NCBI GenBank assembly: GCA_026390115.1
Contig: JAPLGO010000038.1
Span: forward strand, 248,001 to 312,000
Reading direction: 5' to 3'
DNA: 64,000 nucleotides
DNA from: Campylobacterales bacterium
GTDB taxonomy: Bacteria; Campylobacterota; Campylobacteria; Campylobacterales; Sulfurimonadaceae
In this document: positions 14,558 through 32,542 of the stretch, piece by piece
Layout: every line of letters starts with the position of its first letter
Position numbering within the stretch: position 1 is the first letter of the stretch
Program-made: the position numbers and the translations under genes
Notes under the pieces: model-generated
Seen by the model: only the letters and a program-made list of their open reading frames with translations
What the model was told of the DNA's origin: nothing
The model's database searches: none

Positions 14558-14595
14558 AATATATTCCCTCACTTAATCAATAAGAGAGTGTTTTT

Positions 14596-17815: not shown

Positions 17816-19654
17816 TTAGTAACTCTCACCGACCTCTTTATTCTCTATCATCGATTCATTGAAGGCAACAACTTTGTTCCTTCCGCTCTCTTTTGCCGCA
17901 TAGAGGGATATGTCGGCAAATTTTATGCATTTCCAGATACTATCGCTATCACGAGGAAAATGGGAACAACCGACACTGAGTGTTTTGCTGAATGTTTCAC
18001 CGTTTGCAGAGATTTTTTGCTTGCCGAATTCAACACGGATAGCCTCTGCGATTTGTATAATCTTTTCTTGTTCGCAGTTATAAAGAAGAACCAAAAACTC
18101 CTCCCCGCCATAACGAATTGCTATATCGGCTTTTCGTATCTGTTTTTTTATAACGCCGGAGATTATACGAATAGCCTCATCCCCTACATCATGTCCATAG
18201 GTGTCGTTTATCATCTTAAAGTAGTCAATATCCACCATTAAAACACCGTAGTTTGTGTTTGCACGAAGTGCCTGAGGGATTGAAACATCAGCAAACTCAT
18301 CTAAGAATTTACGGTTGTACATGCCGGTAAGTTGGTCAACCCTCGCCATCTGATTGAGCGTCTGCATCAGTTTTTTGCTTACAATTGCAGGTCGTGCCGT
18401 GGTGATATAATCTTCCACATCACTCATAATAGAGCGTACATATTTTGTTTGTACTTCGTTCGTTGTTATTATTGTTAAAATTAGTGTTAAATCATTAGAA
18501 ATAGTATATGGTGTGCAAATATGCTCACTATCTTCAAGCGAATACAAAGCACATGATTTAGTAAATATGCTTGAATCAACACTCGTTTGAATACGCTCTG
18601 CTCTACATTCTCCGCTCAAAATAGAGCAATGCGTCCCTTTCTCGCTATGTACAATTTTTTTAATTTTGTTCATGGTATCTATTTCAGTCATGGTAAAATC
18701 ATCCAAAAGAAAGTGATGTTTTAAAACATAAGCAATTCTGTTGTAGATATCTTCTAACTCTTTATCGTTTTCTATAGTTTGCTTAAACTTGTAAATATCG
18801 GAGAGCCTCTCTATGGTGCTGTTTATATTTTTAAGAGGGTCTGTCTCTTTAACATAATTTTTATTTTTTATAAACACATACACTTTTTTATCAAGCTCTT
18901 CAAAAGTGTGTTGCAATTTTTCTAGCATGGTATTTAAAAGTTTAGCTACGGACTCATTATCTGTATTGTTTACACATTTAACTCTTCCTGAATAATCCCC
19001 ACGGTACGCACTTTGCATGACATCTTTAATAGAGTAAAATATACTTACATAAGGTCTCACAAATCTATTCATAATTATAAATACAAAGATTGCTGTCAAT
19101 ATTGTCAGTCCCATGTTGTAGAGAACACTTTTTATACTGCTCATGCGGATATCAGTAATATCCATAACCATACTCACAACTCCTAAAACTTCACCCTCTT
19201 TTGCTTCATGGCACTGCATACAGTTCGGTGTGCCAAATTCTGATGCAGAAAATGGAATAGTGACACGCATTAAACTTTTACTCGGTGTCTCTGTTGTTAT
19301 GGACTTTGTAATACCGGATTGCAACACCTCTGCATCAATCTTATCCCTCGGTATTTCATTGTTGTGCCCTTCTCCGTACTGCTTGATAACGGTCGGAGAT
19401 CTTGCAACCCAAAGCTCACTAATCTTTTCAACTTTTCCAATCTTATCGAGAAAGTAGTCTCTGTGATCCATTGTACCGTTAACCATGTGTGAGGTTAATC
19501 CGATTTTGACTATTTCTGCAGTTAGGCTTGCTTTGCCTTCGGCCGTGCTTAGACCATAATTTCTAAAGTTTATCGTTGTGCTAACTACCATCGAGATAAA
19601 AAATAGAGCAAAAATTATTGATAAAGCTGTGATTATTTTTTGTTTTGATTCCAC
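17816..19654 (-). CDS. Membrane diguanylate cyclase with periplasmic heme c sensor domain
   Basis: This 612-residue protein makes c-di-GMP. TM1 is at about 8-28 and TM2 at about 177-198. Between them lies a periplasmic domain whose C-terminal part has the CMQCH heme c attachment site (145-149) followed by GEVLGVVSMVMDIT, as in redox-sensing heme domains of the DUF3365/Tll0287 type. A HAMP-like segment, a middle region and a GGDEF domain follow. The active site is GGEEF (516-520), and RKAD five residues before it is a canonical product-inhibition site. The start is GTG with AAAGG upstream. It converges on the helicase gene with a 2-base gap. Sensing of redox or a gaseous ligand is inference. 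Confidence 0.85.
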   Translation of the reverse strand: MESKQKIITALSIIFALFFISMVVSTTINFRNYGLSTAEGKASLTAEIVKIGLTSHMVNGTMDHRDYFLDKIGKVEKISELWVARSPTVIKQYGEGHNNEIPRDKIDAEVLQSGITKSITTETPSKSLMRVTIPFSASEFGTPNCMQCHEAKEGEVLGVVSMVMDITDIRMSSIKSVLYNMGLTILTAIFVFIIMNRFVRPYVSIFYSIKDVMQSAYRGDYSGRVKCVNNTDNESVAKLLNTMLEKLQHTFEELDKKVYVFIKNKNYVKETDPLKNINSTIERLSDIYKFKQTIENDKELEDIYNRIAYVLKHHFLLDDFTMTEIDTMNKIKKIVHSEKGTHCSILSGECRAERIQTSVDSSIFTKSCALYSLEDSEHICTPYTISNDLTLILTIITTNEVQTKYVRSIMSDVEDYITTARPAIVSKKLMQTLNQMARVDQLTGMYNRKFLDEFADVSIPQALRANTNYGVLMVDIDYFKMINDTYGHDVGDEAIRIISGVIKKQIRKADIAIRYGGEEFLVLLYNCEQEKIIQIAEAIRVEFGKQKISANGETFSKTLSVGCSHFPRDSDSIWKCIKFADISLYAAKESGRNKVVAFNESMIENKEVGESY

Positions 19655-19859
19655 TTATCTAGACCTTTTGAAATTTTTTATATTCTAGCACAAAAGTTAT
19701 AAAGAGGCAGAATTTAAGCAGACAATTTACTTCTAAAAAGTCTATAAAGAAGCTGTTTTTTCAGGGATATGGATAATTTTTATCTCTTTCTTTTGATATA
19801 TTTGTGATAAATTTATACGAAATATGATAGCATGTTACAAACATTAAATAGGAGATAAA

Positions 19860-20477
19860 ATGAAAAGAACAATAGTGGTAAGTGTTACAGCTTTTATGCT
19901 TGCATTTATGATGAGTGGCTGTACTGCAATGAAGTTGGGTGTAAAATTTATGGGATTTTCACCGGAAACACAGGAAGCGTATGCAGGAATGATGGATGTC
20001 GTTTCAGCAACAGGTGATCCGGCTCAGGCTATGATGAAAGAATGGCAGATCGTTGATAAAGATATAACAGAAGAGGCTATTTTTGAAGACATGAAATCAC
20101 TTGCCGGTGACTACAACATGAGATTTGTTGGTGAGAAAAACATGTTTAGACTTACAGCGGAAGAAAACCCTACACCTGATAAAGTTGTACATGCAAGAAT
20201 TGCTGAGTTTTGTTCTTTAAGTATTGCTAAAAAGATGTTAAATCACTCTCGTTTTTACGGCGGATTCATGCCATGCCGCGTACTCTATGTTGAGTATGGT
20301 GATGGTAGAAGATACTTAATTTCAATGGACATGACTTTAGCTTTATACGGCGGAACAGATAAAAAGCCGATTAATGCAGAACTTATGGAAGATATGAAAA
20401 ATGTTAAAAAAGCAATGGAAGAGATTCCTGCAATTGCAGCTGGTTATGATATAGAAAAAGCAGCAAAGAAAGATTAA
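19860..20477 (+). CDS. Putative lipoprotein of unknown function
   Basis: The 205 residues start with a lipoprotein signal peptide ending in the lipobox MSGC (cysteine near residue 21). The mature part has no motif I recognise. It contains EFCSLSIAKKMLNHSRFYGGFMPCRVLYVEYGDG, split here by no obvious domain border, and two cysteines. Many Campylobacterota lipoproteins of this shape resemble DUF302-like proteins, but I cannot support that firmly. AGGAG precedes the ATG, and TATGATAG about 30 bases upstream is a plausible -10 box. A strong hairpin follows the gene, so it is probably a single-gene unit. Confidence 0.6.
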   Translation: MKRTIVVSVTAFMLAFMMSGCTAMKLGVKFMGFSPETQEAYAGMMDVVSATGDPAQAMMKEWQIVDKDITEEAIFEDMKSLAGDYNMRFVGEKNMFRLTAEENPTPDKVVHARIAEFCSLSIAKKMLNHSRFYGGFMPCRVLYVEYGDGRRYLISMDMTLALYGGTDKKPINAELMEDMKNVKKAMEEIPAIAAGYDIEKAAKKD

Positions 20478-20489
20478 TAAATTATTCTC

Positions 20490-20515
20490 TATTCCCATCA
20501 TCTCTGATGGGAATA
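20490..20515 (+). terminator. Hairpin after the lipoprotein gene
   Basis: TATTCCCATCA and TGATGGGAATA form a perfect 11-bp stem with a TCTC loop, 12 bases after the stop codon. The following ATTATACTT is AT-rich but not a pure T run. A terminator or mRNA-stabilising hairpin is likely. Confidence 0.6.
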
Positions 20516-20629
20516 ATTATACTTCCACTTCACAACCCCACTTACTTAAGAAAACAAATCAGCCAATAAAAAAAGTTCAAAAAATAGAGTAAAATTGCAA
20601 CATAAAATTAGGGCATGTGGAGAATTATT

Positions 20630-21481
20630 ATGGTTAAAGTGTCTGCTATTCAGATGAGTATGGGTGAAGATAAGGGCGCGAATATCTCAAAGGCTGAGCG
20701 ACTTGTGCGAGAGGCGGCAAAGAGCGGTGCGAATATTGTGCTTTTACCGGAGCTTTTTGAAGGGTTGTATTTTTGCAAAGATATGGACAGCAAATATTTT
20801 TCATGGGCAAATGAGAGAGAAAACAATGCTCTTATAAACCGGTTCGCATTTCTGGCTAAAGAGCTTGAGATTGTGCTTTTGGTGAGCTACTTTGAAAAAG
20901 CCGAGAGTGAGTATTTTAACTCTCTTGTAGTTGTGGACAGAGATGGAATCATTATGGATAATTACCGCAAAACGCACATACCATGCGGAGCGGGATACGA
21001 AGAGAAGTTCTACTTTAAACCCGGGGATACAGGTTTTAAAGTTTGGGATACGGCATATGGAAGGATTGGAGTAGGCATCTGTTGGGATCAGTGGTTTTGT
21101 GAAACTGCAAGAGCTTTGACGCTTATGGGTGCGGAGATTATTTTTTATCCGACTGCAATCGGAAGTGAACCTGAGATAGGGCTGGATTCTAAAGAGCATT
21201 GGCAACGCGTTCAGATGGGGCATGCAGCTACAAACACAGTTCCGATTGTGGTTGCAAACAGATACGGTGAAGAAATCGGCGAGACATGCAGCCTCAATTT
21301 TTACGGTTCCTCTTTTATCACGGACTATACGGGTGCCAAAATCTCCGAAGCAAGCAGAGACAAAGAGGAGATAATTTATGCAGAGTTTGACCTCGAAGAG
21401 AATGCAAAACAAAGAGAATATTGGGGACTTTTACGAGATAGAAGAGAAGAGTGTTATGGAACTATCTGTAAGAAAATTTAA
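20630..21481 (+). CDS. aguB: N-carbamoylputrescine amidase
   Basis: AguB hydrolyses N-carbamoylputrescine to putrescine, CO2 and ammonia, the last step of the agmatine route. It belongs to the nitrilase superfamily. The catalytic triad is visible as Glu in LLPELFEG, Lys in YRKTHIP and Cys in VGICWDQWF. The 283-residue length and the block NRYGEE...FYGSSFI match AguB. The frame opens at an ATG at 20615, but the ATG at 20630 has GGAG at correct spacing and matches the family start (VKVSAIQMS). The partner aguA lies about 7 kb away on the other strand. Confidence 0.9.
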   Translation: MVKVSAIQMSMGEDKGANISKAERLVREAAKSGANIVLLPELFEGLYFCKDMDSKYFSWANERENNALINRFAFLAKELEIVLLVSYFEKAESEYFNSLVVVDRDGIIMDNYRKTHIPCGAGYEEKFYFKPGDTGFKVWDTAYGRIGVGICWDQWFCETARALTLMGAEIIFYPTAIGSEPEIGLDSKEHWQRVQMGHAATNTVPIVVANRYGEEIGETCSLNFYGSSFITDYTGAKISEASRDKEEIIYAEFDLEENAKQREYWGLLRDRREECYGTICKKI

Positions 21482-21523
21482 GTTTAAAAGAGTTCCGCAC
21501 GCCTAAATATCGGAATATAAACC

Positions 21524-21546
21524 AAACTCACTATAGTTTCTTTTTT
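21524..21546 (+). terminator. Terminator after aguB
   Basis: AAACT and AGTTT flank a six-base loop and are followed by CTTTTTT on the plus strand. It lies between aguB and the convergent apbE-like gene and ends at the latter's stop codon. The stem is short, so confidence is moderate. Confidence 0.5.
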
Positions 21547-22372
21547 ATAAAACGGAGTGAACAATTTTTACATGCGATGGAGGAGTTAAATTTGAGTTAA
21601 CTAGCAGTGCTGTGCTCCAGACTCCGGCATCGGTCGCTGTCGGGGCTATCACACTTATTTGAGAGTAATGCTTTTGTTTTCTCGAGATAATATGAGACTT
21701 TCTCTCTTGTTCTATCTGGTAAAAACGCTTTGAATGTCCTGAGGTGCAGAGTGCATTCTCATTTAGTGTAATTTTACAAAGATTTTGCTCCAAAGAGTCA
21801 GGATTTTGTACTCCTACGCACCATGAAGAGGAGTTAAATGTTCCGTATGCAGCCAAATCACCGCCAAAATTGACCAAAGCAGATGAAGCACCGGCATTTT
21901 TTAGAATGAGGATAGATTCATCAACGGCATACTCTTTTACTAAACCGCCTAAATCTATTTTTGTAAAATTGTTTAAAAAGGTAACTTCATTTTTATCGAT
22001 TTTTATATGAGAAGAGGAAGCAAACGGAAGCAGTTTCTTCATTTTTTTATTATACTCTTGGAGTGTCGAGGTAAAAGATGCCTCTTTGAGCGTACCTGCA
22101 ACTGCTATGTCAAAGGCGCCATTTGTTTTGTTAGTATAAAAAAGTGATAGTTGAATTAAACCTGCCAACTCATCGCTCACTATTTGTTTATTTTGTGTTC
22201 TATTATTTAATAAAGTGAGTTGGGAAGATGTTTTGAAAAAGCCATACTCGTTTTCCAACCTTTTTGCGTTTTGATAGATGGCGTGAGCTACTGAATCAGA
22301 GAGAATTTTATCTGCAATCTCTATTTGTAGTTCACACGGTGAGGTAAAAGCTTCAAAATTATAAAGAAACAC
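21545..22372 (-). CDS. ApbE-like FAD:protein FMN transferase
   Basis: ApbE enzymes attach FMN covalently to target flavoproteins such as NqrC or RnfG. The 275 residues carry KIDLGGLVKEYAVD, ALVNFGGDLAAYG and the metal-site region TATDAGVWSTALL, which match the family in order. SGHSKRFYQ replaces the more usual SGxYER/K. There is no clear signal peptide or lipobox, although most ApbE proteins are exported, so either it acts in the cytoplasm or the start is wrong. The start is GTG with a weak ribosome binding site. It lies 13 bases after the 88-residue ORF and may be co-transcribed with it. Confidence 0.75.
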   Translation of the reverse strand: MFLYNFEAFTSPCELQIEIADKILSDSVAHAIYQNAKRLENEYGFFKTSSQLTLLNNRTQNKQIVSDELAGLIQLSLFYTNKTNGAFDIAVAGTLKEASFTSTLQEYNKKMKKLLPFASSSHIKIDKNEVTFLNNFTKIDLGGLVKEYAVDESILILKNAGASSALVNFGGDLAAYGTFNSSSWCVGVQNPDSLEQNLCKITLNENALCTSGHSKRFYQIEQERKSHIISRKQKHYSQISVIAPTATDAGVWSTALLVNSNLTPPSHVKIVHSVL

Positions 22373-22385
22373 CCGTTTTTTGCTT

Positions 22386-22652
22386 TTAGCTGCTGTAAAC
22401 AGAAAGTATATTTTTCATTAAAATTGATTGCAGATTATTTGTATTTACTGCTTTATGCATAGGTGGCATCTGATTGGAGTCTGCACTTTGATTTTGTGCC
22501 AGTTTCATAGCCATCTCGCTAAACTGAACTTTATCCATAGAACTACTTTTTGATTCCGGTGCCATTCCGCTCGCACTACTTTGACTTTGAACTTTTGAAT
22601 TACTCTGCATCTGAGCTAAATTGCTGGACTGAGTCATACTGTTGATATTCAT
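22386..22652 (-). CDS. Small Ser/Gln/Asn/Met-rich hypothetical protein
   Basis: This 88-residue protein of unknown function is unusually rich in Ser, Gln, Asn and Met (for example SNLAQMQSNSKVQSQSSASG). It has one block that could be a helix (MDKVQFSEMAMKLAQNQ). There is no signal peptide or membrane segment. The start ATG has a strong GGGAGG ribosome binding site (CTTAGGGAGGTTAT on the minus strand), which supports real translation. It precedes the apbE-like gene by 13 bases. A 13-bp inverted repeat lies in its upstream region. Confidence 0.6.
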   Translation of the reverse strand: MNINSMTQSSNLAQMQSNSKVQSQSSASGMAPESKSSSMDKVQFSEMAMKLAQNQSADSNQMPPMHKAVNTNNLQSILMKNILSVYSS

Positions 22653-22674
22653 AATAACCTCCCTAAGATTTTTT

Positions 22675-22737
22675 TAGAATGTAAAAAAATGAGAGACATT
22701 GATAATAGGAAACTCTATCTTCTCTTTTTACATTCTA
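22675..22737. repeat. 13-bp inverted repeat upstream of the small protein gene
   Basis: TAGAATGTAAAAA at 22675-22687 is repeated exactly in inverted orientation at 22725-22737 (TTTTTACATTCTA). The 37 bases between are AT-rich. It lies just upstream of the 22652 start, so it is placed as a two-site operator or a long promoter hairpin. No known regulator motif matches that I can name. Confidence 0.55.
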
Positions 22738-22835
22738 GAACTATATAGCTTAAGAATGAAGATTTCGTGAAGATTATGTAAATACAACTGATAATTTCTA
22801 CATGCCAAGGCATGCGGAAATAGTAATAAGAGAGA

Positions 22836-24848
22836 TTAAAATTTAAAGTCTAAATTTGTGTAAACATATCTTCCCGGTTCGTTGAGAAGCATAGTATTTG
22901 CTCCTGCACTTAAAAGTGTCAGGTCAACATAAGTGTTTGATCGTGAATAAGCTTCATCTAACAGGTTATTTACGCCAAGAGTAAAGTCAAAGCTTTTGCT
23001 CACTGCATGCTTTACCTTCATATTTATGATTCCCCATGCATGCAACTCCTGCTCACCACTGTTTAGATCGTAGCTGCTCCATTTGTCTGAGAGCTGCGTC
23101 TCAATTGTAGCGATTGAGTTATTAGCATACTCATAATTTGCAGCTAACCTTCCTCTGAGCGGTGCCATGTCTGCTAAGTCTTTATCAGTTTGCCCTGGTA
23201 AAGATTTGTCTTTCTGTCCTCTTTTGTATGAGACGCTACCATCAAAAGTAAGAGCATCTGTAGCGTAAATTGAGGAGCTGAGTTCAGCTCCGTAAATTGT
23301 TGCATCAATATTCGTAAAGTTGTTTGTTGCAAGATTTTTGTTGTAGTAAATATAGTCTTTTAATGATGAGTAAAAAGTTTTTACTTTAAATTTCATCAAA
23401 CTGTTTTTTGACTCATATCCTAAATCTACCTCTTTATTTGTTGTTTGGTCTAGATTTGGAGTTCCAACTTCTTTGTTTGCAGAACTCATAAAATAGAGTT
23501 CTCTTGCATCCGGAACACGAGAAGCTTGACCTGCTCCTAAAAAGATTTTATTCTGTTTGTCTAAATTGTACGCCGTTAATATATTTGCGTTCACTCCTTT
23601 GTAGTCGTTATCTTGTTGGGTTGCTTTGTCACTTTGTATGTTTGTAGAGTCATATCTGCCCCCGAGAGTTAAATCTATATTACCAAAAGATTTGTCAAGT
23701 TTTGCAAAGAGTGCCGCATTTTTTGTTAGAGCATTATCTATACTTACGGGGCTAGCGGCTAATAGAGTGCCATTTTTATAATAGCTTCCATCCCATGTTC
23801 TTTTGCTTCCATCCACTCCAATTAAAAGTTTATTATCATCTATATCGAAACTGTTTTTAAGTTTAAGACCCTGCATTGTTGTTTTAAGCTGGCTTGTCAT
23901 CTCCATGGCAGGATTTGCTGCTGCCATTCTGTATGCAGTACTCATAGGATGGTCAACATCTGAATAATAATATTGCAAATTTATATCTTTATAAATCTTG
24001 CTGATATCTTTTATATCGTACGCAATGCTATAAAGATTTGAGTAGTCATACATAGCATCCATTGCAGAGTTTGGATACAAAACATTGTCACTTCTATTGT
24101 TTGTTACACCTAGTTGAAGTTCTTGGTTATCTGTAACAGTTACAAATGCTTTCGCCATTAAACTTTTCTTTTTGTAGGCTAACATGTCTTCATATTTTGT
24201 TTGGTATTTACTGCCTTGAACTTTTGCATAATTAGGGTCAGTCATTGGTACTGAAGCAGCATAATTTTTTACTTGTTCACTCAAAGTATTGCCGTTTCCA
24301 TCCACATATTGACCGCCTGTTTCGCTTGAACCGCTTACTAAAACTCTTACAATATCATTTCCGCCACTTGCAGTTGCACCCACTTTTGAGTAGTTCCAGC
24401 TTCCGTACCCAAAGTTTACTTCGCCATGGGCATCTTTTGTTGGTTTTTTAGTTGTGATTTTCACACCGCCGCTCATTGTTCCAAAAGTCTCAACATCGTA
24501 AGGACCTTCAATAACTTCTACTTGATCGATTTGACTCGCCAAGATATGAGAAACCGGAGGGTCCATTCTGTTTGGACATGCACCGCAGATTTTAGTTCCA
24601 TCCACTTCTATAGAGATATTGTCTCTTTTTTGACCACGGATAAAGATGTCGTTTGCGATACCGCTGCGACGGCTCATGTCGATACTAGGGACGCTTTCAC
24701 TTAATGCTTGAGCCAAATCTGCTGAAGTTTTTGCATTTTGGCTTACTTGTGTAACAACCGTTGACTCTACGCTTATTGGTGCCAGATTAACTTCTGCTGC
24801 ATATATAGATGCCGCAGCTATTAAAGAGAGAGGAATTATTTTTTTCAT
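22836..24848 (-). CDS. TonB-dependent outer membrane receptor, OprC/NosA copper type
   Basis: This 670-residue outer membrane receptor begins with a signal peptide (about 1-18). The plug domain (about 35-135) has FIRGQKRDNISIEVDG and the block CGACPNRMDPPVSHI (from C88), then VEVIEGPYDV and SGGVKITTKKP. The Cys/Met-containing PNRMDPP segment is characteristic of the OprC/NosA group, which imports copper and in denitrifiers supplies nitrous oxide reductase. The rest is a 22-strand-type barrel ending in an aromatic residue (NLDFKF). Copper as substrate is inferred from that motif. The gene stands alone. Confidence 0.8.
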   Translation of the reverse strand: MKKIIPLSLIAAASIYAAEVNLAPISVESTVVTQVSQNAKTSADLAQALSESVPSIDMSRRSGIANDIFIRGQKRDNISIEVDGTKICGACPNRMDPPVSHILASQIDQVEVIEGPYDVETFGTMSGGVKITTKKPTKDAHGEVNFGYGSWNYSKVGATASGGNDIVRVLVSGSSETGGQYVDGNGNTLSEQVKNYAASVPMTDPNYAKVQGSKYQTKYEDMLAYKKKSLMAKAFVTVTDNQELQLGVTNNRSDNVLYPNSAMDAMYDYSNLYSIAYDIKDISKIYKDINLQYYYSDVDHPMSTAYRMAAANPAMEMTSQLKTTMQGLKLKNSFDIDDNKLLIGVDGSKRTWDGSYYKNGTLLAASPVSIDNALTKNAALFAKLDKSFGNIDLTLGGRYDSTNIQSDKATQQDNDYKGVNANILTAYNLDKQNKIFLGAGQASRVPDARELYFMSSANKEVGTPNLDQTTNKEVDLGYESKNSLMKFKVKTFYSSLKDYIYYNKNLATNNFTNIDATIYGAELSSSIYATDALTFDGSVSYKRGQKDKSLPGQTDKDLADMAPLRGRLAANYEYANNSIATIETQLSDKWSSYDLNSGEQELHAWGIINMKVKHAVSKSFDFTLGVNNLLDEAYSRSNTYVDLTLLSAGANTMLLNEPGRYVYTNLDFKF

Positions 24849-24887
24849 TATTGCCCTTTTTATAATTATTGAAGTTCATAATATAGA

Positions 24888-24908: not shown

Positions 24909-24940
24909 GGAAGATTGAAAAAGTCTGCTAAAATTCTGAG

Positions 24941-25838: not shown

Positions 25839-25847
25839 AAGGATGAG

Positions 25848-26081
25848 ATGATGAAACAAGCTATCAATATAAGACTAGAAAAAGATATGATTGAAACTTT
25901 GGATGAGTACGCAAAAGAGCTGGATAAATCAAGAACTAGCTTAATTGAAAAGGCTATTGACCTCTATTTTGACAAACTTGATGAAATCATCGCCGACAAA
26001 AGAATAGATAATATTAAAAGCGGAAAAACAAAAGTGATACCTATGGAAGAGGTTTTCAGACAAGCCGGAATAGATGTATAG
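25848..26081 (+). CDS. Ribbon-helix-helix antitoxin
   Basis: This 77-residue protein has an N-terminal ribbon-helix-helix DNA-binding fold (INIRLEKDMIETLDEYAKEL then SRTSLIEKAIDLYF) and a C-terminal tail (KSGKTKVIPMEEVFRQAG) of the kind that wraps round a RelE/ParE toxin. The strand and first helix fit the CopG/RelB type. It overlaps the toxin gene by 8 bases, the usual arrangement for type II toxin-antitoxin pairs, and should repress its own promoter. Confidence 0.85.
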   Translation: MMKQAINIRLEKDMIETLDEYAKELDKSRTSLIEKAIDLYFDKLDEIIADKRIDNIKSGKTKVIPMEEVFRQAGIDV

Positions 26082-26331
26082 TGTTGCCTTTGAAGAGGAA
26101 GCGCAAAAAGAGTTTTTAAAACTTGCAGACAATGTTCGCAAACTTGTCTCTGTAAAAATAGTGGACTTAAAAAACGGAAAATTTTCAAACGATAAATCTC
26201 TCAAAGGCAAACATCACGGCAAATACAGAAAAAGAGCCGGAGACTATCGAATTATATATCTCAGAGAAAACAATATTTTGCTCATAACAATCATCAGATT
26301 GGCACATCGAAAAGAGGTGTATGAGAAGTAG
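26074..26331 (+). CDS. RelE/ParE-family toxin
   Basis: This 85-residue basic protein has the RelE/ParE fold pattern: AFEEEAQKEFLKL, then LKGKHHGKYRKRAGDYRIIYLREN and a C-terminal IIRLAHRKEVYEK. The LxGxxxGxYRxRxGDYRIIY core with its His/Arg/Tyr residues is typical of ribosome-dependent mRNA interferases of the RelE type. It follows its antitoxin with an 8-base overlap and is probably translated by coupling. The RelE-like core and the final HR.xVY make mRNA cleavage more likely than gyrase poisoning; this is inference. Confidence 0.85.
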   Translation: MYSVAFEEEAQKEFLKLADNVRKLVSVKIVDLKNGKFSNDKSLKGKHHGKYRKRAGDYRIIYLRENNILLITIIRLAHRKEVYEK

Positions 26332-26415
26332 AAAAAGTTTAAAAAAACCACACTTGCATCTCCAACAAAACCACAATTTCATCCACACATAAAAAATAAC
26401 AGATTAAGGCAAAAC

Positions 26416-26437
26416 ATATATATATATATATATATAA
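26416..26437. repeat. (AT)n dinucleotide tract
   Basis: An uninterrupted alternating AT tract of about 21-22 bases lies 30 bases before the ankyrin-protein ATG, with AAAAAAGGA between. It sits where the promoter -10 region is expected. Length change by slipped-strand replication could alter promoter geometry. Confidence 0.7.
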
Positions 26438-26466
26438 TCCTCAACTTCACAAAAAAGGATTTATAA

Positions 26467-26895
26467 ATGGTAAAAATAACTTATTCTGATGGGCAGGTTG
26501 TAGAACTTCAAGATGCTTATGATAAGGCAGAGTTGCGTTTAGTGAGAGCATGTTATTGCGATAGTTTGGAGGAAGTAAAATATATTATTGCTTCACATGC
26601 AAAGATAGATGTGAATGCAGTAGTGATTCACTCAAAAAGAGGTAATGGAACATCTTTGATCGTGGCAGGAACTAAAGAGATTGGTAAAGTACTTCTTGAA
26701 AATGGTGCCGATGTGAATAGAGTATATGACACGGGAAGTGCAATAATAACGGCACTTGATTCTGCATACAAAGAGCTTACAAAAAAGAGAGCTTTAACAG
26801 ACGAGACTGTAAAAGAGCAAATAGAAGAGTACATACTGTTTCTTAAAGAAAATGGTGGAAAAAAATATGATGATTTAAAAGAGGAGATGAAGTGA
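26467..26895 (+). CDS. Ankyrin-repeat-like small protein
   Basis: This 142-residue protein has the ankyrin pattern: a first repeat ending in YIIASHAKIDVNAV, then GTSLIVAGTKEIGKVLLENGADVNRV and a third ending in FLKENGG. The Leu/Ala spacing and GADVN turn support the call. No signal peptide is seen, so it should be cytoplasmic. AAAAGGA precedes the ATG. The stop (TGA) overlaps the ATG of the following TPR gene by one base, so the two are coupled. Partner and role are unknown. Such ankyrin-TPR pairs are common in accessory regions. Confidence 0.65.
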   Translation: MVKITYSDGQVVELQDAYDKAELRLVRACYCDSLEEVKYIIASHAKIDVNAVVIHSKRGNGTSLIVAGTKEIGKVLLENGADVNRVYDTGSAIITALDSAYKELTKKRALTDETVKEQIEEYILFLKENGGKKYDDLKEEMK

Positions 26896-27677
26896 TGAAA
26901 AAACTAACCCTCTCCCTCCTCTGTGCAGGATTAATTGCAACCGTTGCCATTGCAGAAGATATGTGCAGTGCAAGTTTTCAGGCAGGCAATTACATCCAGT
27001 CCGAACAATGTTACATCAAACAACTCAAAATAGAGCGTTCGTGGAGGAATTTATTTCGTCTCGGAGCTTCATTAGAGAACCAGCAACGCTATAAAGACGC
27101 ACTTATCTATCTCAATGAAGCCGAAAAGAAATCTTCTTCTTTGGACGAATATGCCCTCGTATACAGCTACCTTAGTTCGGTTCACAGCAACCTTCTACAT
27201 GAAGATAAGAACTATTTTTACAGTATGAAAGTTCTTGATATCAGATTGAAACAGGGAAATAACAATGAAATAGGAAGTGCTTATAACAATTTAGGATTAT
27301 ATTTTAAGAAGCAAACCCAACCGGAAAAAGCGCTTGAAAATTATGAAAAAGCATTGAACTACTCAGAAGAGTCCATGAAAGGAGTCACTTATGGTAACAT
27401 CGCAAGACTTGATGAGGATATGGGGAATACCAAAAAAGCAGAAGAGATGTATCACAAAGCTATTGCTAACTATGAGAAGTTTGGAAAATATGGAGAGTTG
27501 GGAAACACTAAGTGTAATTTAGGGATTTTTTACTATGAACAATCACGCTACGATGAAGCAAAAGTGCTATTTAATGAAGTTCTTGTTATTGCTCAAAGGG
27601 TAGGATTGAAACAAACAGAAGCTACGGCGTTAGAAGGGCTTTCTTTGATAGAAGAGATAAAAAAGGCTAAAAAATGA
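26895..27677 (+). CDS. Secreted TPR-repeat protein
   Basis: The 260 residues begin with a signal peptide (to about residue 20, ending AIAEDM). They continue with Sel1/TPR-like helical repeats, including GSAYNNLGLYFKKQTQPEKA, TYGNIARLDEDMGNTKKAEE and KCNLGIFYYEQSRYDEAKVL. Two cysteines lie near the mature N-terminus. A periplasmic scaffold role is inferred. I start at the ATG at 26895, which has GAGGAG upstream; a GTG three bases earlier is also possible. It is coupled to the ankyrin gene before it and overlaps a 20-codon ORF after it. Confidence 0.7.
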   Translation: MKKLTLSLLCAGLIATVAIAEDMCSASFQAGNYIQSEQCYIKQLKIERSWRNLFRLGASLENQQRYKDALIYLNEAEKKSSSLDEYALVYSYLSSVHSNLLHEDKNYFYSMKVLDIRLKQGNNNEIGSAYNNLGLYFKKQTQPEKALENYEKALNYSEESMKGVTYGNIARLDEDMGNTKKAEEMYHKAIANYEKFGKYGELGNTKCNLGIFYYEQSRYDEAKVLFNEVLVIAQRVGLKQTEATALEGLSLIEEIKKAKK

Positions 27678-27736
27678 AAACAAATGAATTTGAGAGAGCT
27701 GCGAAGATAGCTTGGAATAATTTTAATGCGGGATAA
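27674..27736 (+). other. 20-codon ORF overlapping the TPR gene (gene remnant or small peptide)
   Basis: An ATG at 27674 overlaps the TPR stop (ATGA) and encodes 20 residues (MKTNEFERAAKIAWNNFNAG) to a TAA at 27734. The overlap is the classical coupling arrangement. The peptide reads like the start of a longer soluble protein cut off by a stop. It may be the head of a decayed gene or a short coupled ORF. No downstream continuation in any frame was evident. Confidence 0.35.
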
Positions 27737-27766
27737 ATCTAAGATATAGTTGGAGATAAATGTGAA

Positions 27767-28459
27767 ATGAAAAAGTTATTAATAATTTTAGCTTTGATTT
27801 ATATAAATTTGCTTGCTTATCCATTAGATGAAAATTTACCATACTACAATGGCAGCAGATTTTATATAGGAACAGATTACGGTGTAACCAACAGTATGGA
27901 CGATGGTTATTTCGGTGGAAAAGAAAGTGTTGGAAATGTTGTTGGTGGAAAGAGTAGTACAAGATCAGATATTGAAATTGGTATGATTGAGTCATCCATT
28001 TATAGACCAATGAATGCATTTCTTTACAGATGGCAGTATGACAGCAATAAAAATTTTGAAAGTGGATATGGTATTGGTGCAAAATTTGGATTCCGTCTTG
28101 ATGATCGTAAAAATTTGGGTTATGTTTATTTTGGTGCAAAAGACGGTATCGGCTCACAGTCAACAAAAGGAAATGTTTTTATGACTAAAAACGGATTAAC
28201 AAATGTTTCTTATGCAACACTCAGCAATGGTGTCGGACCAAAACCTGCTGTTTTTATAAAAGATACAGATGTCATAGAGATTGATTTATTGCTTGGTTAT
28301 ACATACGATGTTTGTAAAACTTTTAAAATTTCAGCAAATGTTGATTATATCTCTTCAAATTATGATTTTGCATATCATCTACAAAGCGGAAATGTATTTT
28401 TAGGTGGTCTAACACAAGATACATTGTATTTTAATGTTGGCGTAAAATATGTTTTTTAA
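27767..28459 (+). CDS. Putative outer membrane beta-barrel protein
   Basis: This 230-residue protein has an N-terminal signal peptide (to about residue 18, ending LLAYP). The rest alternates polar and hydrophobic residues with many Gly and Tyr (for example GIGAKFGFRLDDRKNLGYVY). It ends with YFNVGVKYVF, a barrel strand with terminal Phe, as recognised by BAM. No enzyme motif is seen. It resembles small OmpA/OmpW-like barrels in general form only. The ATG is preceded by GGAGATAAATGTGAA, a plausible ribosome binding site. Confidence 0.65.
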   Translation: MKKLLIILALIYINLLAYPLDENLPYYNGSRFYIGTDYGVTNSMDDGYFGGKESVGNVVGGKSSTRSDIEIGMIESSIYRPMNAFLYRWQYDSNKNFESGYGIGAKFGFRLDDRKNLGYVYFGAKDGIGSQSTKGNVFMTKNGLTNVSYATLSNGVGPKPAVFIKDTDVIEIDLLLGYTYDVCKTFKISANVDYISSNYDFAYHLQSGNVFLGGLTQDTLYFNVGVKYVF

Positions 28460-28483
28460 CTAAAGAATTTTTCTATTTTTTCG

Positions 28484-28506
28484 TTCCATCCTCTCCCGAG
28501 GTGGAA
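28484..28506. terminator. Bidirectional hairpin between convergent genes
   Basis: TTCCATCCTC and GAGGTGGAA pair with one bulged base around a TCCC loop. T-rich DNA (TTTTTCTATTTTTT) flanks it on the left, so it could serve the minus-strand gene aguA as well as the barrel gene. Confidence 0.5.
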
Positions 28507-28518
28507 TGTATACTCAAA

Positions 28519-29514
28519 CTAAATAATCTCAACACCCTTCGCAAAGTTCATAGTCACACAGTGGAGAGAGCCATGTTGGCGGACTAGGACGGAGCAGTTT
28601 ACGGCTACAATCTCTCTGCCAATAAAAGTTTTTCTGAAAATCTCTAACGCCTCTTCATCCTGAGAAACTCCATAAGTAGGGACGATTACCGCACCGTTTA
28701 TAATTAAAAAGTTGGCGTAAGTAGCCGGAAGCCGCTCATCATCATAAATCATCTCGTCTGTCATAGGAAGTGCAACGAGTTTAAAACCATGTGATTTTTC
28801 TAGCTCCTGAAGCTCCTCTTCCATAAGTTTGAGCTCTTTGTAGTGCTCATCGCTCTCATCTTCGCACTTCACATACATGATGGTTTTTTCATCGCAAAAT
28901 CTTGCAAGTGTGTCGATGTGTGAGTCGGTATCGTCTCCTGCCAAATAGCCATGATTGAGGTAAAGAACCTCAGTTGCTCCGAGGTAAGCAGAGATTTTTT
29001 GCGTGATTTCTATTGAGTCAAGCATGTGATTTCTGTTTTTGTTTAAAACGCACTCCGAGGTTGTCAAAACCACTCCTGCACCGTTGCTCTCAACGCCGCC
29101 ACCTTCTAAAATAAAGTCGTAACTCTCCATCTTTGTCGAGTAGCGGTTTGCGATTGCTCGGCTCATCTCGTTGTCTAAACGGGCATCAAACTTTCCGCCC
29201 CACCCTGTGAAAATAAAATCAAGAAGTTTCACTTCGCCGTTCTCTTCCACGCATAAAACAGAGCTGTCTCTTGCCCATGTATCGTTTGTTTGGTACTCTA
29301 CAAAGTAAAGATTCCTGCTATCTTTAAAACGGCTTTTTACACTTTTAACATCATCGCAGACAACTAAACACTTCTGGTATCTGATAATCGCATTGATAAT
29401 ATTTACAAATGTCTCCTCTGCCTCATCCAAATACTCCGCCCAATCGCTCTTGGCATGGGGAAAGATAATTTGTGTAAAACTTTGTTCTTCAAACTCTGCT
29501 ATAAATCTTCTCAT
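28519..29514 (-). CDS. aguA: Agmatine deiminase
   Basis: AguA converts agmatine to N-carbamoylputrescine and ammonia. The 331 residues have the guanidino-group-modifying enzyme pattern: TNDTWARDSS, LEGGGVESNGAGVVLTT, NHGYLAGDDTDSHID and the C-terminal Cys nucleophile in GSLHCVTMN. The frame extends to 29580, but I choose the ATG at 29514 because AAGGAA lies 10 bases upstream and the family starts here (RRFIAEFEEQ). It is divergent from alr with only 16 bases between, and its Shine-Dalgarno shares bases with the alr -10 box. With aguB it completes agmatine to putrescine. Confidence 0.92.
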   Translation of the reverse strand: MRRFIAEFEEQSFTQIIFPHAKSDWAEYLDEAEETFVNIINAIIRYQKCLVVCDDVKSVKSRFKDSRNLYFVEYQTNDTWARDSSVLCVEENGEVKLLDFIFTGWGGKFDARLDNEMSRAIANRYSTKMESYDFILEGGGVESNGAGVVLTTSECVLNKNRNHMLDSIEITQKISAYLGATEVLYLNHGYLAGDDTDSHIDTLARFCDEKTIMYVKCEDESDEHYKELKLMEEELQELEKSHGFKLVALPMTDEMIYDDERLPATYANFLIINGAVIVPTYGVSQDEEALEIFRKTFIGREIVAVNCSVLVRQHGSLHCVTMNFAKGVEII

Positions 29515-29515
29515 T

Positions 29516-29524
29516 TGGTATAAT
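29516..29524 (+). promoter_or_regulatory. Extended -10 promoter of alr (leaderless candidate)
   Basis: TGGTATAAT is a perfect extended -10 box ending 6 bases before the alr ATG, so transcription should begin at or next to the A of the start codon. There is no room for a Shine-Dalgarno sequence. The same bases serve the opposite strand as the aguA ribosome binding region. Confidence 0.6.
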
Positions 29525-29530
29525 TCCTTT

Positions 29531-30580
29531 ATGGCTAAAATAACTTTAAATAAAAATAATTTTTTTAATAATCTCGACATTATCGCTAAAGCTACCCAAA
29601 GCGTAGATAAAATTGCGGTGGTTTTAAAAGATAATGCGTATGGGCATGGTTTGGTTGCAATGGCGACTATGGCAAAAGAGTATGGCGTGAAAAAAGCGGT
29701 TGTTCAGACGGAAGATGAAGCGAAACAAATCGAAGATTTTTTTGATTATATTTTGGCATTAAACGCAATTCCTCATGTGCCCGAGCGAAGCGGCAAACAC
29801 CCTTTGGGTGTTAAGAGTGATAAAGTCCGCTACACAATCAACGATTTACATTCGATAGTCAAATTTCCGCAAGGTACAAAAGTTGAACTGAAAGTCGATA
29901 CTGGCATGCACCGAAATGGAGTAGCAATGAACCAACTTGAAGAGGCATTTGCAAAGATAAAAGAGCAGGGGCTTGTTTTGGAAGCTCTTTTTACCCATCA
30001 CAGAAGTGCAGATGAGCTGAGCAGTGAATGGTTTTGGCAAAAGGACAATTTTAAAAAAGTCAAAGAGGAAGCAGTAGGTTTGGCAGGAAAATATGATTTT
30101 GGTGCACTCAGATTTCACTCTTCCAACTCAGCAGCGCTTTTTAGAAACAGCAGTTTTGATGAGGACATGGCAAGGGTTGGAATTGCGGCTTATGGATGCA
30201 TGCAACTTCCGGATGCTATAAAAATAGAAGGTTTAAAACCTGTTTTGTCACTTTATGCAAATAAAATTTCATCAAGAGAGCTTAATAGTAGTGAGAGGGT
30301 CGGCTATGGCGGAACTTTTGAAACAGACAAAAATTGTGTTGTGAGCAACTACGACTTTGGTTACGGAGACGGATTTTTAAGAGTATGCTCAAACAACTAC
30401 ACAACCCCACATGCCAAGAAATTAGTCGGCAGAATCTCTATGGATAACAGCTCTTTTATTTGTGAAGATGATGAGATTCTGATTTTTGATGATGCTTCAA
30501 AAATTGCCCTCAGTGCTAAAACAATGAGTTATGAAGTTTTGACTTCACTAAAATCCTCAATCAGAAGAGAGATAATTTAA
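29531..30580 (+). CDS. alr: Alanine racemase
   Basis: Alr interconverts L- and D-alanine with PLP for peptidoglycan. The 349 residues carry the PLP lysine in VVLKDNAYGHG, KVDTGMHRNG, the TH(H)R segment and, in the C-terminal domain, SSERVGYGGTF (catalytic Tyr) and VGRISMDNSS. The frame opens at 29393, but that would overlap aguA. The ATG at 29531 matches the family start (AKITLNKNNF). It has no ribosome binding site and a TATAAT 6 bases upstream, so the mRNA is probably leaderless. Its 3' end overlaps the convergent EAL gene by 24 bases. Confidence 0.92.
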   Translation: MAKITLNKNNFFNNLDIIAKATQSVDKIAVVLKDNAYGHGLVAMATMAKEYGVKKAVVQTEDEAKQIEDFFDYILALNAIPHVPERSGKHPLGVKSDKVRYTINDLHSIVKFPQGTKVELKVDTGMHRNGVAMNQLEEAFAKIKEQGLVLEALFTHHRSADELSSEWFWQKDNFKKVKEEAVGLAGKYDFGALRFHSSNSAALFRNSSFDEDMARVGIAAYGCMQLPDAIKIEGLKPVLSLYANKISSRELNSSERVGYGGTFETDKNCVVSNYDFGYGDGFLRVCSNNYTTPHAKKLVGRISMDNSSFICEDDEILIFDDASKIALSAKTMSYEVLTSLKSSIRREII

Positions 30581-32542
30581 ATTATCTCTTTTTGGGGCTT
30601 GCCGATTGTAGTACCCTTGAGCGTAATTAACACCCATTTTTTCCAGCAACTCCAGTGAATCTTTATCTTCAACAAACTCTGCGATTGTTTCAAGCCCAAG
30701 ATTTGCAGCGAAATTTATGATGGTCTGGGTTATTTTTTTTGAATTTTCATCCGTCATTACATGTTTTACCAAGGAAGAGTCTATCTTTAAATAATCAATA
30801 TTGAGTTCAAGAATATGTGCAAAATTGGAATAACCGCTTCCAAAATCATCAATAGCGATTTTACAGCCAAACTTTTTGACACTTATTATAAACTCTTTGA
30901 GCTCTTCATAATTCTCAATTTTATCGCTCTCCAGTATTTCAAAAACTACCCTATGGGGTGCGTTAAATGAGCTTAGTTTCTTTATAATAAATTCAAAAGT
31001 TTTTTTATTGAGTACATCATTTATAGAAATATTTATTGAAAATTCATACTCCTTATCTTTAAAAAATTCAAATGATTTGATTATCATCGCTTTTGTAATA
31101 TTTGGATACTGTTTAGACTTTATTGCAATATCTAAAAAATTCAGAGGAGGAACAACCTCTCCATCCTCTTTAATTATTCGGGCTAGACACTCATATTTTT
31201 CTATTATTTTTGTCTGTACATTATAGATTGGCTGAAAATAGGGAGTTATTAAATTTTTGTTTATCGCATCTTTTAAAAATGATGAACCTTCAATATTTTG
31301 AATAATTTTTGATGTTATGTCTAGAGTGTCATTATAAACTACAATATCTTTTTTATTATTTTTAGCATTTTGCAGAGCCATGTTTGCTTTGGACATTAAA
31401 GCTTTTTCACTTGAAGCCAACCCACAGCTCATGGTTATAAATATTTGATTATCTTCTATCTCAATCTGCTTTTTATTGACAGTTTTAAGCATCTCTTTTA
31501 TATTAAGCAAAAACGACTCTTTTGAAATTTTTTTTGTACTTAGAAGTGCGTATTCATCGCTAGGCAGTTTATAAAAAACATTTTCACCGTTTTGACAAGT
31601 ATCTTGCATGGTTTTTGCAATCTCTTTTAAGATTTTATCTCCGATTTCATATCCGTAAAAATCATTAAGTTCTTTAAAACTATCAATATTAAAAAGTGCC
31701 AAATGCAAAAATTTAGAGTTTTTATATTGTTTTATATCTTCTATAAGTTTTACTCTATTTGGCAAGTGCGTCAAAGAGTCGTAGATAAAAGAGTTTTTCA
31801 ACTCTGCCGTTTTTTTCTCTACTGTTGTTTCTAAAAAGTTATTAATATTTTTAACTTTTTTAATAATATAAAAGATAGTAAAAAATAGAAAAATAAAGAG
31901 TATTAAATCATATATTACAGAGTTCATGAAGTTTCTATAAAAATAACCATTTAGCTCTTTTACAGGTATTTTTATGCTTATAATGCCTCTGATTTCACCA
32001 AGTCTGTAGTCATATGCATTTTCATAATTATCCCTGACAAGTTTGGGAGCATCATCTTTTGCTCCATGGCATAATAAACACTTCTGTTCAATTTTTAAAG
32101 CATGGGCAAATTGAAAAAATTTACTATTGCTATCGCTGAAATAATTTTCTTTATCTTGATTTTGTCGTAAAAATTCTATTGCTTTAAGCTCGTCGCTATC
32201 GGCTGAATTTTTTATATTTCTTGCTCTGTCCGAAACAGTTTTAATGGTAATGTTAAGAGGATTCTGCAGTGAAAAAGTTTCTGATATTATACTTGAGCTA
32301 AATGCGGGAAGGGCAGGAAGTGTCTCTTTGTTGAGGGGTATTGTTTTGTTTATAAAAAAATTTTGGTAATACTCTCTGTGTGTAATGGCGTAACTGTTTA
32401 AAACTTCCGCCTCTTTTTTTGCAAACTCATACCTTCGCTCTTTTGTGTTATTGTAGGCGTAAGAAACCCTCAAAAGTATCACTATTATAAAAATTATCGG
32501 AATGATGTAGAGAATTCTGTTATTAAATAGTTTTACCGACAC
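30557..32542 (-). CDS. Membrane c-di-GMP phosphodiesterase (degenerate GGDEF + EAL) with heme c sensor
   Basis: This 661-residue protein has TM1 at about 9-27, a periplasmic DUF3365/Tll0287-type domain with a CLLCH heme c site (155-159), a second membrane segment (about 210-228), a GGDEF domain and an EAL domain. The GGDEF motif is degenerate (LPSDEYALL), so no cyclase activity is expected. The EAL domain keeps its key residues: E in YECLAR, N in SINISIND, E in FEILES, DD in AIDDFGSGYS, K in YLKID, and E in IAEFVED. It is predicted to degrade c-di-GMP. The start is GTG with AAGGA upstream. It mirrors the heme-c cyclase at 17816. Confidence 0.85.
   Translation of the reverse strand: MSVKLFNNRILYIIPIIFIIVILLRVSYAYNNTKERRYEFAKKEAEVLNSYAITHREYYQNFFINKTIPLNKETLPALPAFSSSIISETFSLQNPLNITIKTVSDRARNIKNSADSDELKAIEFLRQNQDKENYFSDSNSKFFQFAHALKIEQKCLLCHGAKDDAPKLVRDNYENAYDYRLGEIRGIISIKIPVKELNGYFYRNFMNSVIYDLILFIFLFFTIFYIIKKVKNINNFLETTVEKKTAELKNSFIYDSLTHLPNRVKLIEDIKQYKNSKFLHLALFNIDSFKELNDFYGYEIGDKILKEIAKTMQDTCQNGENVFYKLPSDEYALLSTKKISKESFLLNIKEMLKTVNKKQIEIEDNQIFITMSCGLASSEKALMSKANMALQNAKNNKKDIVVYNDTLDITSKIIQNIEGSSFLKDAINKNLITPYFQPIYNVQTKIIEKYECLARIIKEDGEVVPPLNFLDIAIKSKQYPNITKAMIIKSFEFFKDKEYEFSINISINDVLNKKTFEFIIKKLSSFNAPHRVVFEILESDKIENYEELKEFIISVKKFGCKIAIDDFGSGYSNFAHILELNIDYLKIDSSLVKHVMTDENSKKITQTIINFAANLGLETIAEFVEDKDSLELLEKMGVNYAQGYYNRQAPKRDNLNYLSSD
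30568..30594. terminator. 22-bp perfect palindrome at the alr/EAL 3' overlap
   Basis: AGAGATAATTT at 30568-30578 is followed directly by its exact inverse AAATTATCTCT (30579-30589) and then TTTTT on the plus strand. It contains the alr stop codon and lies within the last codons of the convergent EAL gene. It works best as an alr terminator. Coding and terminator sequence are shared between strands. Confidence 0.65.

What the first reader, a model, noticed from the sequence alone, without database searches (positions are those of the whole stretch)
17816..32542. A matched pair of heme-c sensor proteins: one makes, one degrades c-di-GMP
The proteins at 17816-19654 and 30557-32542 share a membrane layout with a periplasmic CXXCH motif of the DUF3365/Tll0287 type. 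The first has an intact GGEEF and an inhibition site RKAD. The second has a dead GGDEF (PSDEY) but a complete EAL domain. Such sensors could set c-di-GMP up and down according to redox state or a gas, with opposite outputs. They lie 11 kb apart in a window rich in respiratory genes.
Basis: partly seen in the sequence, partly recalled or inferred. Interest (0 to 1): 0.6.

Follow-up and report, generated by a model that had tools for sequence, protein, structure and literature searches.

The report
Two heme-c sensors controlling c-di-GMP
A Sulfurimonas-type bacterium carries, 11 kb apart, one membrane protein that should make and one that should break down the signal molecule c-di-GMP, each probably steered by a heme outside the membrane; both resemble known sensor types and do not look like a special matched pair, but the maker also has a second, cysteine-rich sensor-like domain inside the cell.

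Summary
Both proteins exist as described. P1 (17816-19654, -) has an intact GGEEF and RKAD I-site. P2 (30557-32542, -) has a degenerate GGDEF (PSDEY) and all catalytic EAL residues. Each has a CXXCH between two membrane helices. "DUF3365/Tll0287" fits P2 firmly (98 bits, cut-off 24) but not P1, which fails that profile. A confident model gives P1's sensor the same broad fold (single Cache); the Geobacter heme-c chemoreceptor GSU0935 (3b42) is the best Foldseek hit, and invariant Met57 could be the distal ligand. P2 has no conserved distal Cys, Met or His. So the two hemes probably differ. "Matched pair" is not supported: the genome has at least six predicted heme-c c-di-GMP enzymes, chance proximity is about 0.06-0.14, and co-occurrence in 47 congeners is not significant. 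P2's sensor family, including fusions to c-di-GMP enzymes and NO binding, was described in a February 2026 preprint. It is found in 132 of 397 sampled Campylobacterota genomes, all in the window's order, and sometimes without the heme sensor, so P1 looks like a two-input cyclase.

The parts
17816..19654 (-). P1: 612-aa membrane diguanylate cyclase, heme-c single Cache - TM - HAMP-like linker - Cys-rich GAF - GGDEF
   Evidence: HAMP profile matched in 3 of 29 relatives only, best E 0.001
19562..19642 (-). P1 first membrane helix (res. 5-31)
   Evidence: hydropathy; coordinates
19136..19567 (-). P1 sensor (res. 30-173), single-Cache fold, inferred periplasmic
   Evidence: model pLDDT 89.5, pTM 0.83; 3b42 best Foldseek hit
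19484..19486 (-). P1 Met57, candidate distal heme ligand
   Evidence: 29 of 29 and 34 of 34 in an overlapping set found through the GAF domain; GSU0935 Met60 by analogy (PMC8396549 passages)
19208..19222 (-). P1 heme-c motif CMQCH (res. 145-149)
19052..19135 (-). P1 second membrane helix (res. 174-201)
   Evidence: hydropathy; coordinates
18359..18832 (-). P1 cytoplasmic GAF-fold domain (res. 275-432)
   Evidence: model of 275-440, pLDDT 90.8, pTM 0.85; GAF hits, best Z 12.7
18515..18628 (-). P1 GAF cysteines C343, C350, C368, C380
   Evidence: C350, C368, C380 29 of 29; C343 column 26 of 29 but only 29 of 80 in the larger alignment; a Cys somewhere in the 20 columns before C350 in 28 of 29 and 77 of 79
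17873..18346 (-). P1 GGDEF domain (res. 437-594), GGEEF 516-520, I-site RKAD 507-510
   Evidence: 149.6 bits
30557..32542 (-). P2: 661-aa membrane c-di-GMP phosphodiesterase, Tll0287-like heme-c Cache - TM - degenerate GGDEF - EAL
32447..32536 (-). P2 first membrane helix (res. 3-32)
   Evidence: hydropathy; coordinates
31964..32428 (-). P2 Tll0287-like sensor (res. 39-193), inferred periplasmic
   Evidence: PF11845 98.4 bits, cut-off 24.1; profile hits 5b82 at E 2.5e-19
32066..32080 (-). P2 heme-c motif CLLCH (res. 155-159)
31844..31933 (-). P2 second membrane helix (res. 204-233)
   Evidence: hydropathy; coordinates
31349..31786 (-). P2 degenerate GGDEF (res. 253-398, signature PSDEY)
   Evidence: 79.6 bits; GG absent in 12 of 12 of the direct orthologue group
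30608..31276 (-). P2 EAL domain (res. 423-645)
   Evidence: 204.1 bits; catalytic residues

Best explanation
P1 and P2 are two independent inner-membrane c-di-GMP enzymes of a Sulfurimonas-type bacterium with denitrification genes, each with a covalent heme c in a periplasmic single-Cache domain. In P1 the heme is probably held by His149 and Met57; oxidation, or NO/CO binding, would displace the Met and pass a movement through TM2, the HAMP-like linker and the GAF domain to the GGDEF pair, changing c-di-GMP synthesis. The GAF domain adds a second, cytoplasmic input through its cysteines (Fe-S cluster, Zn or thiol switch). In P2 the distal heme site seems to lack any conserved protein ligand, comparable to the NO-binding P. 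azotoformans protein that lacks the axial Cys, so P2 would be an NO-responsive phosphodiesterase whose degenerate GGDEF is structural or binds GTP. Shown here: sequences, domains, conservation, fold models, genome content. Inferred: topology, heme attachment, ligands, signal, sign of the response, enzyme activity.
For: P2: PF11845 98.4 bits, profile to Tll0287 5b82 E 2.5e-19, EAL residues intact. P1: CXXCH and Met57 invariant in 29 of 29 and 34 of 34; sensor model with GSU0935 3b42 as best Foldseek hit, E 6.8e-7, and Tll0287 at Z 8.9; a same-genome chemoreceptor whose sensor is related to P1's (E 1.1e-7) passes PF21563 at 37 bits, cut-off 27. P1 output GGEEF plus RKAD. GAF model with three invariant cysteines and nearly always a fourth in the loop before them, and the same cysteines in proteins without heme sensor, L298-L300. 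The genome encodes a cytochrome c assembly protein (1050-aa frame), a cytochrome cd1-type nitrite reductase and a NosZ-type protein, so heme c attachment and periplasmic NO are plausible. Literature: a membrane sCache_heme protein with HAMP bound NO tightly (PMC12889525, parts 1-4 of 6 read); GSU0582/0935 bind NO and CO and switch spin state with redox (PMC8396549 passages).
Against: P1 fails the PF11845 profile; PF21563 is not listed for full-length P1 and stays under its cut-off for the N-terminal part. The sequence profile of P1's sensor found no heme Cache structure in the PDB even at E 10, only CXXCH cytochromes or chance matches. The 3b42 match has TM 0.45 and rmsd 14; I ascribe this to the domain swap. 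P1 itself has no HAMP match. No heme, ligand or activity data exist. P1 presence is not associated with nirS (p=0.69), and the nir-adjacent relative of P2 in this genome has no nir/nor gene nearby in 14 of 14 loci of 13 relatives. So NO as the signal is not backed by gene context, apart from P2 x nirS (12 of 13 congeners against 17 of 34, p=0.008, uncorrected for descent and for ten tests).
Confidence: 0.6

Rival explanations
1. A true matched pair: P1 and P2 read the same redox or gas signal and set c-di-GMP up and down in opposition.
For: Opposite intact outputs; genes 11 kb apart here and about 9 kb apart in the same order in G047, and probably near each other in G021.
Against: Sensors alike only around CXXCH; conserved Met57 in P1 but no conserved distal Met or Cys in P2 orthologues; co-occurrence not significant (p=0.19 in 47 congeners, 0.68 in the 34 that are at least 90% complete); gene order alr - P2 - orf136 in 11 of 12 fetched relative P2 loci, while P1 has varied neighbours; chance proximity 0.06-0.14.
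Confidence: 0.12
2. The hemes are redox sensors of the periplasm or respiratory chain (nitrate, oxygen, sulfide) rather than NO sensors.
For: His/Met type predicted for P1 as in GSU0935, for which redox-linked ligand exchange is proposed (PMC8396549 passages); P1 not associated with nirS.
Against: The one membrane sCache_heme protein with HAMP that the preprint tested bound NO tightly and formed no stable O2 complex (PMC12889525); P2 co-occurs with nirS (uncorrected).
Confidence: 0.3
3. P1's GAF is the main input and the heme domain is a modifier or relic; or the cysteines only bind structural Zn.
For: The Cys-GAF-GGDEF part occurs without the heme sensor in L298-L300.
Against: CXXCH is present in 79 of 79 relatives and Met57 in 80 of 80 aligned sensors, P1 included (one of the two search patterns included HM, so see also 34 of 34 for each), so the heme site seems to be under strong selection.
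Confidence: 0.2

Closest known systems
sCache_heme / DUF3365 / Tll0287-like (PF11845), PMC12889525
   Same: P2: profile, CXXCH, two membrane helices, fusion to a signalling output; the preprint already names fusions to c-di-GMP enzymes, enrichment in Campylobacterota and NO binding. P1: same broad fold and motif.
   Different: P1 is not recognised by the PF11845 profile; neither window protein has been assayed as far as I found.
GSU0582 / GSU0935 heme-c chemoreceptor sensors of Geobacter (3b47/3b42; PF21563 Mcp40H-20_sensor, link between the two recalled)
   Same: P1: best Foldseek match, CXXCH just before the last strand, conserved Met in the N-terminal helix comparable to GSU0935 Met60.
   Different: Output is a cyclase, not a chemoreceptor; P1 scores 16 bits against a cut-off of 27.
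Chloroplast Sensor Kinase / Hik2 GAF with [3Fe-4S] (PMC6949291, passages read)
   Same: A GAF domain with a conserved cysteine used for redox sensing.
   Different: CSK has two conserved cysteines, one of them a shown ligand; P1 has three invariant cysteines and nearly always a fourth, of unknown cofactor, and a GGDEF output.
PA14_53310, P. aeruginosa cyclase with a heme-binding periplasmic CHASE4 domain (PMC13277305, passages read)
   Same: A cyclase whose periplasmic domain binds heme.
   Different: Added, non-covalent heme in a CHASE4 domain; P1 has a CXXCH in a single Cache.
PA0861 (5xgb) and other EAL phosphodiesterases
   Same: P2's EAL domain aligns over most of its length with all catalytic residues, including the AEFVE motif.
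   Different: Different input domain; P2's GGDEF signature is lost.

Membership tests
Tll0287-like / sCache_heme (PF11845): P2 | profile match over the curated cut-off | tested here: met
   98.4 bits against 24.1; profile to 5b82 E 2.5e-19
Tll0287-like / sCache_heme (PF11845): P2 | CXXCH heme-c motif between two membrane helices | tested here: met
   CLLCH 155-159; motif kept in 11 of 12 of the direct orthologue group L039-L050, lost in the broken L040
Tll0287-like / sCache_heme (PF11845): P1 | profile match over the curated cut-off | tested here: not met
   no match at E<=1; 2 of 29 P1-type members match, best E 0.031
Tll0287-like / sCache_heme (PF11845): P1 | single-Cache fold with the CXXCH in an insertion before the last strand | tested here: met
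   (WalK, DcuS, CitA; 5b82 Z 8.9, rmsd 4.8 over 125; 3b42 E 6.8e-7)
Mcp40H-20_sensor (PF21563, GSU0582/0935 type): P1 | profile match over the curated cut-off | tested here: not met
   16.1 bits against 27 over most of the profile for residues 5-435, not listed for the full length; same-genome chemoreceptor L007 passes at 37 bits
Mcp40H-20_sensor (PF21563, GSU0582/0935 type): P1 | distal Met ligand | tested here: inconclusive
   Met57 invariant, but no residue-level alignment to 3b42 was available
both sensor families | covalently bound heme c | not testable with these tools
   needs heme stain and spectra; the genome has a cytochrome c assembly protein
GGDEF diguanylate cyclase: P1 | GG[DE]EF active site and RxxD I-site | tested here: met
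   GGEEF 516-520, RKAD 507-510; activity not testable
EAL phosphodiesterase: P2 | catalytic residues E, N, E, DD, K, E, Q (list recalled) | tested here: met
   enzyme activity itself not testable
GAF domain: P1 residues 275-432 | GAF fold | tested here: met
   pLDDT 90.8; GAF structures such as 3ci6 Z 12.7, rmsd 3.3 over 152
GAF domain: P1 residues 275-432 | Pfam GAF profile match | tested here: not met
   none for P1 at E<=1; none among the 25 of 47 families shown for 29 members at E<=0.5
Fe-S or Zn GAF sensor: P1 | bound cluster or metal | not testable with these tools
   only the cysteine pattern is known

The most novel reading that the evidence does not exclude
P1 belongs to an undescribed, order-wide class of two-compartment redox cyclases in Campylobacterota: a heme c with His/Met ligation senses NO or redox outside, and a four-cysteine GAF domain holding an Fe-S cluster senses it inside, both gating one GGDEF output.
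Probability: 0.35. Interest if true: 0.65.

Novelty: new variant of a known kind. Interest (0 to 1): 0.38.

Why it matters
The heme-c sensors were reclassified as a Cache family in a 2026 preprint that tested two proteins, neither with a catalytic c-di-GMP output as described in the parts I read. P1 and P2 would let one host show how a heme c outside the membrane controls making and breaking of c-di-GMP, with two different heme environments. The Cys-GAF domain of P1, found in a third of the sampled Campylobacterota genomes, is a concrete sensor candidate that also occurs without the heme domain and can be purified on its own.

Tried and rejected
Matched-pair test by co-occurrence: P1 (sensor at least 49% identical) against P2 (at least 45%) in 47 congeners (own genome left out), 4 with both, 4 only P1, 9 only P2, 30 neither, p=0.19; with any P1-type protein p=0.17. 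G004's broken P2 was counted as present. Not supported.

Chance of proximity: with 3 cyclases and 3 EAL proteins bearing CXXCH (7 of 50 fetched GGDEF/EAL loci, one protein being there twice; 30 of 60 GGDEF and 20 of 23 EAL places were fetched, and long proteins may be cut, so six is a lower bound), an opposite-output pair within 12.9 kb has p about 0.085 and any pair 0.137; with five proteins 0.057 and 0.093. Not significant.

NO by gene context: a 657-aa heme-c GGDEF-EAL protein near nir/nor genes in this genome looked like strong context, but 0 of 14 loci in 13 relatives show nir/nor genes in the fetched stretches, several of which end at contig ends; G002, G041, G032 and G048, which have a close relative of the protein, have no nirS match. 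Rejected as evidence.

P1 sensor against PDB by sequence profile: no heme Cache. 3b42, first in Foldseek, is not among the 50 rows shown by VIA-align. GAF against PDB by sequence: only chance matches. Plasmids: no match to the P1 GAF. Viral contigs: no relative of the GAF among 198 pattern matches. tRNA and Rfam scans of the window: nothing.

Literature: no paper on a GAF domain with an iron-sulfur cluster in a diguanylate cyclase appeared (two hits, unrelated by title and start of abstract; none); no title or abstract start described P1-type proteins, but I did not open most of those papers, and the library lacks most subscription journals. For PMC3460858 I saw the listing and one passage search without hits; of PMC3831638 passages.

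Limits: sets overlap. The 29-row P1 set uses 29 of 30 loci (L021, a partial frame, left out); the 79 loci and the 34 sensors include some of the same genomes. A2 uses 17 of 30 loci: L040 and L052 were left out because they lack CXXCH, 11 others as distant or partial, so describe motif-bearing sensors only. A5 uses 66 and A7 63 of 80 rows (79 loci plus P1): 14 rows were thinned by eye as near-duplicates, and A7 also lacks two partial frames (L094, L097) and L083 (it contains an X). In the 80-row alignment the C343 column holds Cys in only 29 rows, so the fourth cysteine has no fixed place. No model coordinates were available, so distances between the GAF cysteines could not be measured. In one search at most 9 candidates per genome were scored, so 132 is a lower bound.


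Full report
Setting. The window lies on contig C8 of a 2.64-Mb genome. The best named matches to P1's N-terminal part are MAGs labelled Helicobacteraceae bacterium (97%) and Sulfurimonas sp. (96%), so the host is a Sulfurimonas-type Campylobacterota bacterium.

Observation. P1 (17816-19654, minus) and P2 (30557-32542, minus) are genuine genes with a CXXCH between two hydrophobic helices. P1 has GGEEF and RKAD; P2 has LPSDEY and a full EAL. The genes are 10.9 kb apart (12.9 kb from start to start). Between them lie, among others, alanine racemase, a deiminase, DTW, a TonB receptor, ApbE, a nitrilase-like hydrolase and a DUF302 protein.

P2 sensor. Pfam PF11845 at 98.4 bits; a profile of 17 sequences, P2 included, finds Tll0287, 5b82, at E 2.5e-19. 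In each of the 12 sequences of the direct orthologue group (L039-L050, own P2 first) the sensor holds exactly two cysteines; Met varies from 0 to 2, and L043 has no His outside the motif. So no distal ligand is conserved. One orthologue, in G004 (L040), reads CLNCN and is interrupted; a 45% relative, L052, reads CLSGH.

P1 sensor. No PF11845 match. Comparing profiles of 29 P1-type and 17 P2-type sensors aligns only 37 columns around CXXCH and the next strand, probability 90.8. A model from 66 sequences has pLDDT 89.5 and pTM 0.83. Foldseek ranks GSU0935 (3b42) first at E 6.8e-7, with TM 0.45 and rmsd 14; that the swapped dimer causes the poor superposition is my inference. VIA-align ranks WalK 12.4, DcuS 9.5 and Tll0287 8.9. 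PF21563, named after a class-40H chemoreceptor, matches residues 5-435 of P1 weakly over most of its length (16 bits, cut-off 27; 5 of 29 members, best E 0.00049) and is not listed for full-length P1. It passes for a chemoreceptor of the same genome (L007, 37 bits) whose sensor is related to P1's (E 1.1e-7). That PF21563 covers GSU0582/0935 is recalled from its name, not from a call. H56 and M57 are invariant in 29 of 29; in 34 sensors found through the GAF domain instead, M57 is 34 of 34 and H56 32 of 34. In GSU0935 one heme has His144-Met60 ligation, and CO or NO replaces the Met (PMC8396549 passages). I infer His149/Met57 for P1.

P1 GAF domain. Residues 275-440 were modelled from 63 sequences with pLDDT 90.8 and pTM 0.85. 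The leading matches are mostly GAF domains, with some quorum-sensing receptor domains of similar shape among them (3ci6 Z 12.7), although no Pfam GAF profile matches P1. C350, C368 and C380 are 29 of 29 and the C343 column 26 of 29; in the larger alignment the C343 column has Cys in 29 of 80, but some cysteine lies in the 20 columns before C350 in 77 of 79. The domain occurs in 132 of 397 sampled Campylobacterota genomes and 41 of 68 genera, all matching genomes being in the window's own order. In this genome there are two matches: P1 and a 39% identical paralogue (C33, 615 aa). In L298, L299 and L300 the domain precedes GGDEF without a heme sensor and with the cysteines kept, so it is a module in its own right. 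Three rows (L292, L297, L301) reported only a fragment as the GAF match and were not counted either way.

Pairing. Six predicted heme-c c-di-GMP enzymes were found among the fetched GGDEF/EAL loci of this genome, beside 60 GGDEF and 23 EAL matches in all and heme-c kinases, chemoreceptors and a stand-alone domain. The gene order alr - P2 - orf136 holds in 11 of 12 fetched relative P2 loci, the exception being the 45% relative L219. P1 lies beside recD2 in the window and in L082 (91% identical); in five other genomes (L077, L079, L086, L089, L090) it lies some 5-6 kb from a TonB-receptor gene, and elsewhere in other places. P1 and P2 are near each other in G047 and probably in G021, where the TonB gene lies at the ends of two contigs. 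P1 and P2 do not co-occur more than chance. I therefore reject the matched pair as a unit, while keeping the two outputs as predicted.

Signal. The genome has a cytochrome c assembly protein, a cytochrome cd1-type nitrite reductase and a NosZ-type protein, so periplasmic NO is plausible. P2 occurs with nirS in 12 of 13 congeners, against 17 of 34 congeners without P2, p=0.008, not corrected for descent or for the ten tests made. P1 shows no such link. The nir-adjacent heme-c phosphodiesterase of this genome has no such neighbours in 14 loci of 13 relatives. The preprint PMC12889525 (parts 1-4 of 6 read) reports tight NO binding for one membrane member with HAMP and redox-like behaviour for a stand-alone one. 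NO for P2 and redox or NO for P1 is the best guess, not a result.

Novelty. P2 is a new member of a family described with this kind of fusion. P1 is a variant: a heme-c Cache outside both Pfam profiles, joined to a cysteine GAF for which the searches listed no description in a cyclase; the nearest found was the Fe-S GAF of chloroplast sensor kinase (PMC6949291 passages).

Noticed in passing
L206:5980-8744 and 9859-17134 (G000:C18): A 657-aa heme-c (CLKCH) protein with HAMP-like region, degenerate GGDEF and EAL, followed by a Crp/Fnr-type regulator, faces a nir/nor block (names other than the two cytochrome cd1-family proteins are my reading of the sequences); 0 of 14 relative loci show this arrangement.
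   Followed up: yes
L108, L110, L111 and 15 other loci up to L145, about 7.8-10.6 kb: 18 of 79 P1-family loci, 15 of them labelled Sulfuricurvum, carry a second P1-type heme-c/Cys-GAF protein convergent with the first; none of the 18 has GG[DE]EF, and the four read show FDGDEF (two), YGGDTF and LSGDEF, so a possible active/inactive pair.
   Followed up: partly
L298, L299, L300: The cysteine GAF joined to GGDEF without a heme-c sensor.
   Followed up: partly
L040 / L207 (G004): A P2 orthologue that is interrupted and has lost the heme-binding His of CXXCH (CLNCN).
   Followed up: no
G000:C24, 851-aa protein (L166, L187): Another heme-c (CLVCH) protein with GGDEF and EAL domains, possibly bifunctional.
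   Followed up: no
window 6779-8062: A 427-aa hydrophobic protein with no Pfam match at E<=0.01.
   Followed up: no
window 30557-30580: The 3' ends of P2 and the alanine racemase gene overlap by 24 bases on opposite strands.
   Followed up: no
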